Shown in pieces: positions 1 through 26,104 of a DNA stretch of 32,306 nucleotides (positions are counted from its first letter, which is position 1; each line of letters starts with the position of its first letter). The notes below the pieces were generated by a model, which worked only from the letters and a program-made list of their open reading frames with translations, was not told where the DNA came from and searched no databases. Both the position numbers and the translations under genes were made by a program. Source of the DNA: Solirubrobacterales bacterium (lineage in GTDB: Bacteria > Actinomycetota > Thermoleophilia > Solirubrobacterales > 70-9); the NCBI GenBank assembly GCA_021154855.1, contig JAJKHV010000105.1:1-32306 (forward strand), in the 5' to 3' direction.

Positions 1-66
1 CGTAACGCGACGGGCAAGGTGCTCAAGCGGGAGCTGCACGCGCGTGAGACCGAGAAGTCGGCTTAG
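1..66 (+). CDS. C-terminal end of an acyl-CoA synthetase / AMP-dependent ligase (partial, truncated by window start)
   Basis: Frame 1 reads RNATGKVLKRELHARETEKSA-stop; the N(A)TGKVLKREL motif is typical of the C-terminus of fatty-acyl-CoA ligases. Confidence 0.75.
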   Translation, partial: RNATGKVLKRELHARETEKSA

Positions 67-178
67 GGCCAATCCCGGTAGGGGTTTCACTTAACTTTTT
101 GGATGGAGCCGTACTTGCTGGCGCCTCAAGGTCAGCGCCAAAAAGTACAAGACGTTTCACCCCTACCGGGATTGGCTC
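66..178. repeat. Dispersed structured repeat family 1, copy 1
   Basis: 18-bp perfect inverted repeat GCCAATCCCGGTAGGGGT (68-85) / ACCCCTACCGGGATTGGC (159-176); inner CTTTTTGG / CCAAAAAG stem; conserved flanks shared with 25981-26091. Confidence 0.9.
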
Positions 179-267
179 TCGACGCATCTCGCCACTTCGC
201 TAAATGGGAGCTTTTGCGGTCAGCGGGGGTAGCTTGGCCTCCGGTGCCGGTAGTAGGTTGCCCACTC

Positions 268-1158: not shown

Positions 1159-2592
1159 ATGCGCGAGGTGCGGATCAAGGACACGCTTACTGGTGACGTC
1201 GTCACCGTCGACCGGAGTGCCGAGGTTGGAATCTACGCCTGTGGCCCGACCGTCTACAGCCGCATCCACATCGGCAATGCACGGCCTTTCGTTGTCTTTT
1301 CCCTTCTCGCCAGATTCCTCAGGTCGGAGGGGTACCGGGCGAAGTTGGTGGTCAACGTCACCGACATCAACGACAAGATCTACGTGGCGGCTCGCCAGGC
1401 GGGGGAAGAGTCGGCCGCCTTTGCCGAGCGGATGACCCGGGCTTACTTCGAGGACACCGAGCGGCTCGGCTTGGGCCGGCCCGACGCGGAGCCGTTGGCC
1501 ACCGAGACGATCAGTCAAATCACCAAGCTGATCTCCGATCTGATCGAGGCGGAGCACGCCTATGAGTCGAGCGGGGACATCTACTTCCGGGTGCGCAGCT
1601 TCGCTGCCTACGGCAAGCTCTCCAACCGGCGCACGGAGGATATGGATCAAGGGGAGGAGGCTGGTTCGGCTTCGCTCAAGGAGGATTCGCTCGACTTCGC
1701 CCTATGGAAGGCGCACAAGCCGGGCGAGGACACCTTTTGGGACTCACCCTGGGGCGCGGGTCGGCCTGGCTGGCACATCGAGTGCTCGGCGATGGCCGAG
1801 GCCGAGCTGGGACCGTCCTTTGCGATCCACGGTGGTGGCTCCGACCTGGTCTTTCCCCATCACGAGAATGAGATTGCCCAATCGGAGGCGGCGGGGCGTC
1901 CGTTTGCCCGGGCCTGGATGCACAACGGGATGGTCGAGACTGACGCGGAGAAGATGTCGAAGTCGGAGGGGAACATCTTTCAGCTGTCGGAGGCGCTGGA
2001 TCAGTATGGGTCCGAGGCGGTCGTCGCCTATCTGATCTCAGGTCATTACAGACAGCCGCTTGCTTTCGGGCCGCAGCAGATGGAGGAAGCGGTGGCGCAG
2101 GTCGAGCGGTTGAGGAACTTCTTCAGGGAGCATCCCGTCCGGGGAGGTGAGTCGGAGGAGAGCCCGTCAGAGCTTGTCGGGGGAGACTCGGGGGAGGGTC
2201 CGTCAGAGCAACAGCGGGGAGGCTCTGCCGGACCCTCCCCCGAGTCTCGTCGCGAAGCCTTCAGGGACGCGCTTGCGGATGACTTCAACACGCCAAGGGC
2301 CATGGCGGAGGCATTTGAGCTCGTCGGCGATGCGAATCGTCAGGACGTCCCCGGGCCGCAGGCAGCTGAGGCTCTGGCGGAGATGCTCGACCTCGTCGGC
2401 CTTGGCTCCCTTACCCAGCCGGACCAGGGAGCTGAGGGCGACGACGAGGCGCAGAAGCTTCTCGAGAAGCGACAGGAAGCTCGGGCGGCTAAGGACTTTG
2501 GGCGGGCTGACGAGATTCGGGATCGGTTGGAGGAGCTTGGCTGGGAGGTTCGTGATTCGGCCGAGGGCGCTCGTTTGGTGCCCAAGGGCTAG
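1159..2592 (+). CDS. cysS: Cysteinyl-tRNA synthetase
   Basis: YACGPTVYSRIHIGNARPFV, FPHHENEIAQSEA and KMSKSEGN motifs; full-length ORF. Confidence 0.97.
   Translation: MREVRIKDTLTGDVVTVDRSAEVGIYACGPTVYSRIHIGNARPFVVFSLLARFLRSEGYRAKLVVNVTDINDKIYVAARQAGEESAAFAERMTRAYFEDTERLGLGRPDAEPLATETISQITKLISDLIEAEHAYESSGDIYFRVRSFAAYGKLSNRRTEDMDQGEEAGSASLKEDSLDFALWKAHKPGEDTFWDSPWGAGRPGWHIECSAMAEAELGPSFAIHGGGSDLVFPHHENEIAQSEAAGRPFARAWMHNGMVETDAEKMSKSEGNIFQLSEALDQYGSEAVVAYLISGHYRQPLAFGPQQMEEAVAQVERLRNFFREHPVRGGESEESPSELVGGDSGEGPSEQQRGGSAGPSPESRREAFRDALADDFNTPRAMAEAFELVGDANRQDVPGPQAAEALAEMLDLVGLGSLTQPDQGAEGDDEAQKLLEKRQEARAAKDFGRADEIRDRLEELGWEVRDSAEGARLVPKG
2146..2248. repeat. Tandem (~36 nt) repeat plus long palindrome inside cysS
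   Basis: GGTGAGTCGGAGGAGAGCCCGTCAGAGC is repeated as GGAGACTCGGGGGAGGGTCCGTCAGAGC; 20-bp perfect inverted repeat 2183-2202 / 2229-2248 with a further 6-bp inner stem 2204-2209 / 2222-2227. Confidence 0.9.
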
Positions 2593-4120: not shown

Positions 4121-4133
4121 GGCCCTCAGGCCT

Positions 4134-4201
4134 GCGCATATCGGCGTCCTCGGTCGCTTGCGTGCGAAGCACGCGGCGCTCCCTGCGTCCTTGATCTGCC
4201 T
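4134..4201. repeat. Dispersed repeat family 2, copy A (convergent intergenic)
   Basis: GCGCATATCGGCGTCCTCGGTCGCTTGCGTGCGAAGCACGCGGCGCTCCCTGCGTCCTTGATCTGCCT, ~90% identical by eye to 15238-15306; central hairpin GCGTGC-GAA-GCACGC. Confidence 0.88.
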
Positions 4202-4223
4202 GCCCGGAGCCCTCAGGCAGATC
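4193..4223. terminator. Hairpin at the 3' end of the minus-strand GNAT gene, candidate (bidirectional) terminator
   Basis: 10-bp perfect inverted repeat GATCTGCCTG (4193-4202) / CAGGCAGATC (4214-4223) overlapping the minus-strand stop codon at 4213-4215. Confidence 0.5.
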
Positions 4224-14999: not shown

Positions 15000-15233
15000 A
15001 TGTGGGTTGTGCGTTTGAGCGACAAGCAGCTCGAGGTGCTGAGGGCGTTGCTGCGCTCCGAAGAACATCTGGGTCCCGCGCTGCAAGGCGCAGCCGAGGC
15101 CCTCGATCTGGCCCGCTGGGACGACCTGCCCGAGGCCGAGCTTCCCTGGGAGGAAATCGAGACGAAGGCGCGCCAGCAGGGCATCTCTCCCGCTGACGTG
15201 ATCTGGGACCTCGCCGGGAAGAGCTGCGACTAG
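15000..15233 (+). CDS. Small hypothetical protein (77 aa)
   Basis: ATG preceded by GGAGG (CTGGAGGTGTCGCATG); MWVVRLSDKQLEVLRALLRSEEHLG...WDLAGKSCD. Confidence 0.65.
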   Translation: MWVVRLSDKQLEVLRALLRSEEHLGPALQGAAEALDLARWDDLPEAELPWEEIETKARQQGISPADVIWDLAGKSCD

Positions 15234-15237
15234 ACCG

Positions 15238-15306
15238 GCGCATTTCGGCGTCCTCGGTCGCTCGCGTGCTGAAGCACGCCACGCTCCCTGCGTCCTTGAA
15301 CTGCTT
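15238..15306. repeat. Dispersed repeat family 2, copy B (convergent intergenic)
   Basis: GCGCATTTCGGCGTCCTCGGTCGCTCGCGTGCTGAAGCACGCCACGCTCCCTGCGTCCTTGAACTGCTT; hairpin GCGTGC-TGAA-GCACGC; bracketed by near-perfect 16-bp inverted arms 15221-15236 / 15307-15322. Confidence 0.88.
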
Positions 15307-15322
15307 GGTCTAGCCGCAGCTC

Positions 15323-24701: not shown

Positions 24702-25979
24702 ATGGATTTCGCACTGAACGAGGAGCAGCAGGAGTTCAAGGAGCGCTGCCGGACCTTCGCCCGCGAGGTGATCAGGCCAGCGGCCCGCAAGCACGACGAA
24801 GAGGAGAGCATTCCTTGGGACGTGATCAAGGAGGCCCGTAAGCAAGGGTTCGGCGGCCTCGAGGCCATCCAGCGCTCCGCTGGCGACTCCGAGGGCCAGA
24901 TGCAGGTGATCTCGGCGGAAGAGTTTCACTGGGGCTGCGCCGGGATCGCCCTGGCAGTCTCCGGCTCCGGTCTTGCCGCGGCGGGAATTGCCTCCTCGGG
25001 AACCCCCGAGCAGATCGGCCGCTGGGTCCCGGAGTGCTTTGGGGTCGGCGATGAGATCAAGCTCGGCGCCTACGCGGTTACCGAGCCGCAGGCCGGCTCG
25101 GACGTGAAGAGCCTCAAGACGACGGCCAAGCGCGATGGCGACGAGTGGATCCTCAACGGGACCAAGGTCTTCATCACCAACGGCGGAATCGCCGACGTGC
25201 ACGTCGTCGTCGCCACCGTCGATCCGAGTCTCGGCACTCGCGGCCAGGCCTCGTTCGTCGTCGGCAAGGACACACCCGGCCTGAGCCAGGGCAAGAAGGA
25301 GTCCAAGCTGGGGATCCGTGCCTCCCACACGGCCGAGATCGTCCTCGACGACTGCCGCATCCCGGTCGAGAACCTGCTCGGCGGCGAGGAGAAGCTGGAA
25401 AAGAAGCTCGAGCGTGGCCGCTCTGGTCAGAAGTCGCGCGGCGGAGCCGACGCGCTGGCGACCTTCGAGATCACCCGACCCCTGGTCGGCGCTTCGGCGC
25501 TCGGTATCGCCCAGGCCGCCTATGAGTGGACGCTCGAGTACCTCGACGGCCAAACCGAGGGCGGCAAACCGATCTTGCAGGAGCAGCGCATCCAGCAGAC
25601 CCTGGCCGACGTCGCCACCGAGATCGAGGCCGCGCGCCTGCTTGTCCAGCGCGCCGCTTGGATGGGCCGCAACGGAATGCCGATGCGCGGCGGTCAGGGC
25701 TCGATGTCGAAGCTCAAGGGCGGCGACGTGACGATGTGGGCGACGACGATCCTGATGGACCTCGTCGGACCGTACGCCTGGAGCAAGGACTGCCCACTGG
25801 AGAAGTGGTTCCGCGACGCCAAGATCTACCAGCTCTTCGAGGGCACGGCGGAGATTCAGCGCATGGTTATCTCGCGGATGCAGGCGCGCGAATACGCCGA
25901 GCGGCTTGGCTACGCGGCCGAAGTGGCCGAGCAGGCGATTGCAGCGAAGCCGGTGGAGAAGGAGCCGGTCGCGGCGTAG
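24702..25979 (+). CDS. Acyl-CoA dehydrogenase
   Basis: MDFALNEEQQEFKERCRTFAREVIRP, YAVTEPQAGSDVKSLKTTAKRDGDEWILNGTKVFITNGG, YQLFEGTAEIQRMVISR. Confidence 0.96.
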   Translation: MDFALNEEQQEFKERCRTFAREVIRPAARKHDEEESIPWDVIKEARKQGFGGLEAIQRSAGDSEGQMQVISAEEFHWGCAGIALAVSGSGLAAAGIASSGTPEQIGRWVPECFGVGDEIKLGAYAVTEPQAGSDVKSLKTTAKRDGDEWILNGTKVFITNGGIADVHVVVATVDPSLGTRGQASFVVGKDTPGLSQGKKESKLGIRASHTAEIVLDDCRIPVENLLGGEEKLEKKLERGRSGQKSRGGADALATFEITRPLVGASALGIAQAAYEWTLEYLDGQTEGGKPILQEQRIQQTLADVATEIEAARLLVQRAAWMGRNGMPMRGGQGSMSKLKGGDVTMWATTILMDLVGPYAWSKDCPLEKWFRDAKIYQLFEGTAEIQRMVISRMQAREYAERLGYAAEVAEQAIAAKPVEKEPVAA

Positions 25980-25980
25980 G

Positions 25981-26091
25981 GATCTATCCCGGTAGGGGTT
26001 TCACTTAGCTTTTTCGGTGGATCGGATTGGGCTTGCGCCCGATGCGCGCGCCGAAAAAGTACAAGACGTTTCACCCCTACCGGGATAGGTC
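25981..26091. repeat. Dispersed structured repeat family 1, copy 2
   Basis: 16-bp perfect inverted repeat CTATCCCGGTAGGGGT (25984-25999) / ACCCCTACCGGGATAG (26073-26088); CTTTTTCGG / CCGAAAAAG inner stem; internal segments TTTCACTTA and AAAAAGTACAAGACGTTTCACCCC shared with copy 1. Confidence 0.9.
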
Positions 26092-26104
26092 CTAAGCTCG
26101 GGGC

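What the first reader, a model, noticed from the sequence alone, without database searches (positions are those of the whole stretch)
66..178. Dispersed structured element (family 1) with covarying stems and a conserved internal loop, starting right after a stop codon
Seen directly: two copies in the window (66-178 and 25981-26091) share the outer arms ATCCCGGTAGGGGTTTCACTTA and AAAAAGTACAAGACGTTTCACCCCTACCGGGAT. They differ in the extended outer stem (CCAAT/ATTGG versus TCTAT/ATAGG), the inner stem (CTTTTTGG/CCAAAAAG versus CTTTTTCGG/CCGAAAAAG) and the apical hairpin sequence, yet pairing is preserved in each. The unpaired segments (TTCACTTA on the left, TACAAGACGTTTC on the right) are nearly invariant. 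Conserved loops with covarying helices are the hallmark of a functional structured RNA or a hairpin DNA element (REP/MITE type). Both copies begin 1-2 nt after a TAG stop on the plus strand, behind a fatty-acyl-CoA ligase tail and an acyl-CoA dehydrogenase. Inference: an undescribed 3'-UTR RNA motif or terminator-like element, or a REP/MITE-like mobile family.
Basis: partly seen in the sequence, partly recalled or inferred. Interest (0 to 1): 0.82.

Follow-up and report, generated by a model that had tools for sequence, protein, structure and literature searches.

The report
Mobile hairpin repeats at gene ends
A previously undescribed family of about 113-base hairpin-forming repeats has spread through two related soil-bacterium genera, usually landing right behind genes, and its two arms keep changing in step in a way that points to folded DNA rather than folded RNA as the form that matters.

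Summary
Both copies are present, and the element has 22 copies in this 2.2-Mb genome and at least 97 across 13 genomes of two genera. No other of 54 genera in the order carries it, and Rfam has no match. Every outer-stem pair covaries, far above a tree-simulated null. The stem is nearly always 20-23 bp. The asymmetric loop is conserved and includes one canonical (G-C/A-U) and one non-canonical (U.A/C.C) covarying position.

It is best read as a mobile palindromic element (REP/MITE/RPE-like). Sister species have 6-22-nt gaps where this genome carries the ~117-bp element, and copies sit in-frame inside an ABC ATPase and a glycosyltransferase. The arms are probably kept paired at the DNA level: G.U is no commoner than A.C in the stem (33 vs 52), whereas tRNA stems of related genomes give 29 vs 0.

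A 3'-UTR RNA role is weakened but not excluded, because copies next to stop codons are overwhelmingly sense-oriented (46:4). No U-tract, no target-site duplication, no RAYT-type transposase and no integron integrase were found. The mobilising enzyme is unknown. Verdict: a new variant of a known kind.

The parts
63..180 (+). element copy 1 (whole), starting at the TAG stop (64-66) of the upstream gene
   Evidence: cmsearch with R1, 118.9 bits; sequence
65..85 (+). copy 1, outer stem, 5' arm
   Evidence: pairs with 159-179, 95% complementary over 21 nt
86..93 (+). copy 1, conserved left loop strand TTCACTTA
   Evidence: conserved in 96 aligned copies
94..102 (+). copy 1, inner stem 5' strand ACTTTTTGG
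   Evidence: pairs with 138-146
138..146 (+). copy 1, inner stem 3' strand CCAAAAAGT
   Evidence: pairs with 94-102
147..158 (+). copy 1, conserved right loop strand ACAAGACGTTTC
   Evidence: conserved; covaries with the left loop strand at two positions
159..179 (+). copy 1, outer stem, 3' arm
25977..26094 (+). element copy 2 (whole), starting at the TAG stop (25977-25979) of the acyl-CoA dehydrogenase gene
   Evidence: cmsearch with R1, 119.2 bits
25980..25999 (+). copy 2, outer stem, 5' arm
   Evidence: sequence; fold
26000..26007 (+). copy 2, conserved left loop strand TTCACTTA
26009..26017 (+). copy 2, inner stem 5' strand CTTTTTCGG
26051..26059 (+). copy 2, inner stem 3' strand CCGAAAAAG
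26060..26072 (+). copy 2, conserved right loop strand TACAAGACGTTTC
26073..26092 (+). copy 2, outer stem, 3' arm; sister genome G001 lacks the element here
   Evidence: empty-site comparison
24702..25979 (+). acyl-CoA dehydrogenase gene upstream of copy 2 (context)
   Evidence: Pfam PF00441/PF02770/PF02771
26105..27019 (+). cation-efflux transporter gene downstream of copy 2 (context; true start may be later)
   Evidence: Pfam PF01545

Best explanation
It is a lineage-specific, non-autonomous mobile palindromic DNA element. An approximately 113-bp unit is inserted as a whole, both arms included, mostly in the few bases behind stop codons and sometimes in-frame in protein linkers. It probably works as a folded single-stranded DNA hairpin: a ~21-bp outer stem of almost free sequence presents a conserved asymmetric internal loop and an inner stem that an unidentified transposase or recombinase recognises. 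The arms stay complementary at the DNA level, through hairpin selection, replication template switching, or both. Shown: multi-copy spread, whole-unit insertion, covarying structure, conserved loop, sense bias at stop codons, absence of a G.U excess. Inferred: that folded DNA is the recognised form, and that a trans-acting enzyme moves it.
For: 22 copies in this genome and 97 distinct copies in 13 genomes. Insertion: the cdsA/dxr gap is about 124 nt here and 22 or 6 nt in two sister species; recO/dgt is about 128 nt versus 10-19 nt; copy 2 of the window is absent from G001. Copies lie in-frame and stop-free between the two ATPase domains of an ABC transporter (three orthologs) and, antisense, between the two domains of a GT4 glycosyltransferase. 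Structure: 32 modelled pairs, 91.7% paired versus 53-55% when slid by one column, 752 cells changed on both sides; pairs exceed a tree-simulated null. Stem length is 20-23 bp in 68 of 94 copies. DNA-level pairing: G.U 33 versus A.C 52 in outer stems, against 29 versus 0 in tRNA stems of related genomes of the order. At shared orthologous sites the outer stem diverges in sequence while staying paired, also inside coding genes.
Against: No target-site duplication signal (1.78 versus 1.62 +/- 0.14). No Y1/RAYT transposase, no integron integrase above cut-off, and no consistent reverse transcriptase, so the mobilising enzyme is unknown. The 46:4 sense bias at stop codons is not explained by DNA-level mobility alone. 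Sister genomes are divergent, so precise ends and target sites could not be fixed. Copies at many orthologous sites have persisted across two genera, so the element is not only young and selfish.
Confidence: 0.57

Rival explanations
1. A functional structured RNA in the 3' untranslated region: the transcript folds behind the stop codon and acts as an mRNA 3'-end stabiliser, processing site or unusual terminator, with a protein or RNA fold recognising the conserved loop.
For: 46 sense-only versus 4 antisense-only copies next to stop codons; starts within about 10 nt of the stop codon in most; convergent genes each with their own copy in facing pairs; strong covariation and conserved loop with a non-canonical U.A/C.C co-change; one copy directly after an rRNA operon.
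Against: No G.U excess in the outer stem, and A.C even exceeds G.U in the sense 3' copies, 41 versus 18; no U-tract after the stem; lies between tightly linked cdsA-dxr and recO-dgt; copies in coding regions in both orientations and upstream of divergent genes; no Rfam match.
Confidence: 0.25
2. Passive palindromes: remnants of an old insertion wave whose arms are kept perfect by replication template switching (quasipalindrome correction), with no present function or mobility.
For: Template switching is reported to create and maintain perfect hairpins with multi-base double changes (PMC8794818) and to homogenise inverted-repeat arms in coding genes (PMC8604942, abstract); G.U and A.C mismatches about equal; arms paired even inside coding copies.
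Against: The unpaired loop strands are the most conserved part and stem length stays at 20-23 bp, which a passive process does not predict; species-specific insertions; sense bias.
Confidence: 0.13
3. A classical DDE-transposase MITE, for example inserting into TA dinucleotides such as those of stop codons, whose autonomous partner is missing from the assembly.
For: Whole-unit insertion with terminal inverted repeats; TAG stops enriched at the insertion edge, 29 of 48 versus 125 of 336 in called genes, p = 0.003.
Against: No target-site duplication above shuffled flanks; terminal arms are not conserved in sequence, unlike transposase-recognised ends; no copy flanks a transposase-sized gene among the pairs seen.
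Confidence: 0.05

Closest known systems
REP/BIME elements (GTAG- and CGTC-tagged palindromes; PMC3733652)
   Same: Multi-copy palindromes mainly downstream of genes, between codirectional and convergent genes, sometimes in facing pairs or inside genes.
   Different: About 113 bp instead of 20-40 bp; conserved part is an asymmetric internal loop, not a GTAG/CGTC tag at one end; stem sequence almost free; no RAYT/Y1 transposase gene found in ten carrier genomes.
Rickettsia palindromic elements (RPE; reviewed in PMC10969869)
   Same: Palindromes of 100-150 bp inserted in-frame in unrelated protein genes as well as elsewhere; mobilising enzyme unknown.
   Different: Unrelated taxon; most copies here are at gene 3' ends in sense orientation; arms vary freely with compensation.
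Bacterial MITEs
   Same: Short, non-autonomous, inverted-repeat ends, species-specific insertions.
   Different: No target-site duplication, no conserved terminal sequence, no partner transposon found.
Integron attC sites (PMC2727003)
   Same: Works-like resemblance only: stem, unpaired spacer, second stem, variable tip; structure conserved and sequence variable; lies behind genes in fixed orientation.
   Different: No integron integrase above cut-off in 18 genomes, no cassette arrays seen, and the conserved RCTTAAC lies in the inner loop with partner GTACAAG, not as attC outer R boxes.
Intrinsic (Rho-independent) terminators
   Same: Strong hairpin behind stop codons and between convergent genes.
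   Different: No U-tract after the stem, long two-part stem with conserved internal loop.

Membership tests
REP/RAYT system | 20-40 bp palindrome with an unpaired GTAG or CGTC tag at one end | tested here: not met
   About 113 bp; no end tag conserved across 94 copies; definition from PMC3733652
REP/RAYT system | RAYT (Y1 transposase, PF01797) encoded in the genome | tested here: not met
   None in ten carrier genomes; one hit in a non-carrier. MAGs are incomplete; some REP types lack a RAYT
MITE | Inserted unit absent from orthologous sites of relatives | tested here: met
   cdsA/dxr, recO/dgt and window copy 2
MITE | Target-site duplication | tested here: not met
   1.78 versus 1.62 +/- 0.14 nt for shuffled flanks
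MITE | Conserved terminal inverted repeats shared with an autonomous transposon | tested here: not met
   Terminal arms vary between copies, identity 0.46-0.50; no partner seen among the copies found
RPE-like palindromic elements | In-frame insertion in unrelated protein-coding genes | tested here: met
   ABC double ATPase, GT4 glycosyltransferase, a membrane protein
RPE-like palindromic elements | Sequence relationship to described RPE families | not tested
   RPE sequences were not fetched; no copies outside Solirubrobacterales in the 85k-species scan
Integron attC | Integron integrase in the genome | tested here: not met
   TIGR02249: 0 of 18 genomes above cut-off
Integron attC | R''/R' core boxes (RYYYAAC / GTTRRRY) at the outer ends | tested here: not met
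   Outer arms free in sequence; RCTTAAC lies inside, partner GTACAAG
Intrinsic terminator | GC-rich hairpin followed by a U-tract | tested here: not met
   T fraction after the stem 0.18, same as the 5' flank; scan negative
Structured RNA under RNA-level selection | Covariation above a phylogeny-aware null | tested here: met
Structured RNA under RNA-level selection | G.U pairs tolerated more than A.C mismatches | tested here: not met
   33 versus 52; tRNA control 29 versus 0
Structured RNA under RNA-level selection | Transcribed and with strand-specific placement | tested here: inconclusive
   Placement is strongly sense; no expression data available
Any Rfam family | Match to a curated covariance model | tested here: not met

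The most novel reading that the evidence does not exclude
A folded single-stranded DNA recombination substrate of a new kind: an actinobacterial hairpin with attC-like layout but freely varying arms, recognised through a conserved asymmetric loop (with an unusual U.A/C.C exchange) by an unidentified recombinase that places it behind stop codons in the sense orientation.
Probability: 0.2. Interest if true: 0.82.

Novelty: new variant of a known kind. Interest (0 to 1): 0.6.

Why it matters
Compensatory double changes are usually taken as proof of a functional RNA. Here a textbook-strength covariation signal (every outer-stem pair) comes with no G.U excess and occurs also inside coding genes, which points to folded DNA or template switching. 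It is a clean, many-copy natural test case for telling RNA-level from DNA-level conservation of hairpins, and a warning for covariation-based RNA discovery. It also exposes a genus-specific mobile hairpin family with an unknown mobilising enzyme.

Tried and rejected
Rfam at gathering and lax thresholds: only chance-level hits. Viral contigs: no copy. One hit in a Ghiorsea MAG was a chance match in coding sequence without the palindrome. RAYT/Y1 transposase, reverse transcriptase and integron integrase as partners: absent or not correlated. Target-site duplication: no signal. A composite element with cargo between facing pairs: the middles differ between genomes, and where gene ends could be read the pairs mostly belong to convergent genes, each with its own copy. 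Comparing folding energy of the two strands to choose the functional strand: contradictory between DNA and RNA parameters. Empty-site alignment at the membrane-protein site: too divergent to place ends. Some of the first automatic gene calls were on the wrong strand; Pfam confirmed the sense genes in three such cases.

Full report
Check of the observation. The two window copies are exactly as described. The shared arms have no chance expectation in the window, and both copies fold far more stably than shuffles. A BLASTN search of the same genome gave about 17 copies. A covariance model built from 17 copies gave 22 in the 2.23-Mb, 74%-complete assembly. The family is present in all three genomes of the same genus and most genomes of one other genus of the family. 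It was not found in the other genera: 13 of 50 family genomes carried it, and 12 of 232 genomes and 2 of 54 genera in the order at a stricter threshold. A pattern scan of 85,000 species returned only Solirubrobacterales/Thermoleophilia/Actinomycetota MAGs of this group plus one chance match. Viral contigs gave none.

Anatomy. From 97 distinct copies the layout is: (i) an outer stem, 20-23 bp in 68 of 94 copies, whose sequence is nearly free; (ii) an asymmetric internal loop, left strand yCrCTYAA and right strand (GU)ACAAGMCGYU; (iii) an inner stem, usually ACUUUUUCGG/CCGAAAAAGU but replaced by ACCCUU.../...AGGGU in G063 and G065; (iv) a variable tip. On 93 copies the 32 modelled pairs are 91.7% standard; sliding one column drops this to 53-55%, and 752 cells change on both sides. 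Against a null simulated along a FastTree phylogeny, the outer-stem pairs, one canonical loop pair (G-C 48, A-U 35) and one non-canonical loop pair (U.A 63, C.C 27) exceed the null maximum. This null is my own simplified version, not R-scape.

Placement. A sense gene stop lies within -12 to +50 nt of the element start in 64 of 97 copies, against 4% of random positions. Counting copies with a stop next to one side only, 46 are sense and 4 antisense (p = 4e-10), or 38 to 4 after removing repeated orthologous sites. Genes come from my own codon-usage caller. It mis-assigned some strands; in three such cases Pfam confirmed the sense gene (Ppx/GppA, LigD PolDom, MFS). Other copies lie upstream of divergent genes, behind an rRNA operon, or inside genes. 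In coding copies the frame is open and no stop occurs: sense between the two ATPase domains of an ABC transporter in three orthologs, antisense between the two domains of a GT4 glycosyltransferase, and sense and antisense in a membrane protein.

Insertion. Sister species of the same genus have 6-22 nt where this genome has about 124-128 nt (cdsA/dxr, recO/dgt), and G001 lacks window copy 2. Both outer arms are part of the extra DNA. At jag/rsmG the element appears to have supplied a new start region of the downstream reading frame. There is no target-site duplication signal. TAG stops are enriched at the insertion edge, 29 of 48 versus 125 of 336 in called genes, compatible with insertion at or into stop codons.

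DNA or RNA? Many sites are shared by descent between species or genera. At these sites the outer arms diverge in sequence yet stay paired. If the transcript were the selected form, G.U intermediates should outnumber A.C mismatches. They do not: 33 versus 52 overall, and 18 versus 41 in sense 3' copies. A tRNA control from related genomes of the order gives 29 versus 0; ARAGORN may not bracket mismatches, so this control is indicative. Template switching during replication is reported to maintain and rewrite hairpins by double changes (PMC8794818; coding cases PMC8604942, abstract). It could explain perfect arms, but not the conserved unpaired loop or the fixed stem length. I therefore favour a DNA hairpin that is itself recognised, with template switching possibly helping to keep the arms perfect.

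Partner enzyme. Y1/RAYT transposase is absent from ten carriers. Reverse transcriptase is present in only two of 18 genomes. No integron integrase passes its cut-off. The enzyme remains unknown.

Relation to known kinds. Placement resembles REPs, which also lie downstream of genes, in facing pairs and sometimes in genes (PMC3733652). In-frame insertion resembles Rickettsia palindromic elements (PMC10969869). Layout resembles attC sites (PMC2727003), but defining tests for REP/RAYT and attC failed. I file it as a new variant of mobile palindromic elements, not as a member of a named family.

Limits. The genomes are mostly metagenome assemblies of different species, so insertion ends are approximate; there is no expression data; the enzyme is unidentified; and the sense bias is not explained by the favoured model.

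Noticed in passing
window 4121-4212 and 15232-15307: A second dispersed repeat family of about 75 nt, both window copies between convergent genes; about 25 matches in this genome.
   Followed up: partly
window 2183-2248: A near-perfect inverted repeat (27-bp arms) inside the coding gene 1159-2592; further copies in this genome and in G002, perhaps a third palindromic family, this one inside a gene.
   Followed up: partly
L156:2668-2750, L156:7288-7370, L157:2945-3020: In G063 the stretch between facing element pairs holds another conserved sequence of about 85 nt (CTCGCTGTGAACTTATGGTGCCATGAGAACCAAAATGCTTCAG...), also once without a left partner.
   Followed up: no
L110:1362-1478: The downstream rsmG reading frame appears to start inside the element, so the insertion may have supplied a new N-terminus.
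   Followed up: partly
L095:2287-2403 and 2841-2957 (also L094, L096): One membrane-protein gene carries two facing copies, one sense and one antisense, kept in two genera.
   Followed up: partly
L097:2395-2646: Two copies in direct tandem between divergent genes in G001.
   Followed up: no
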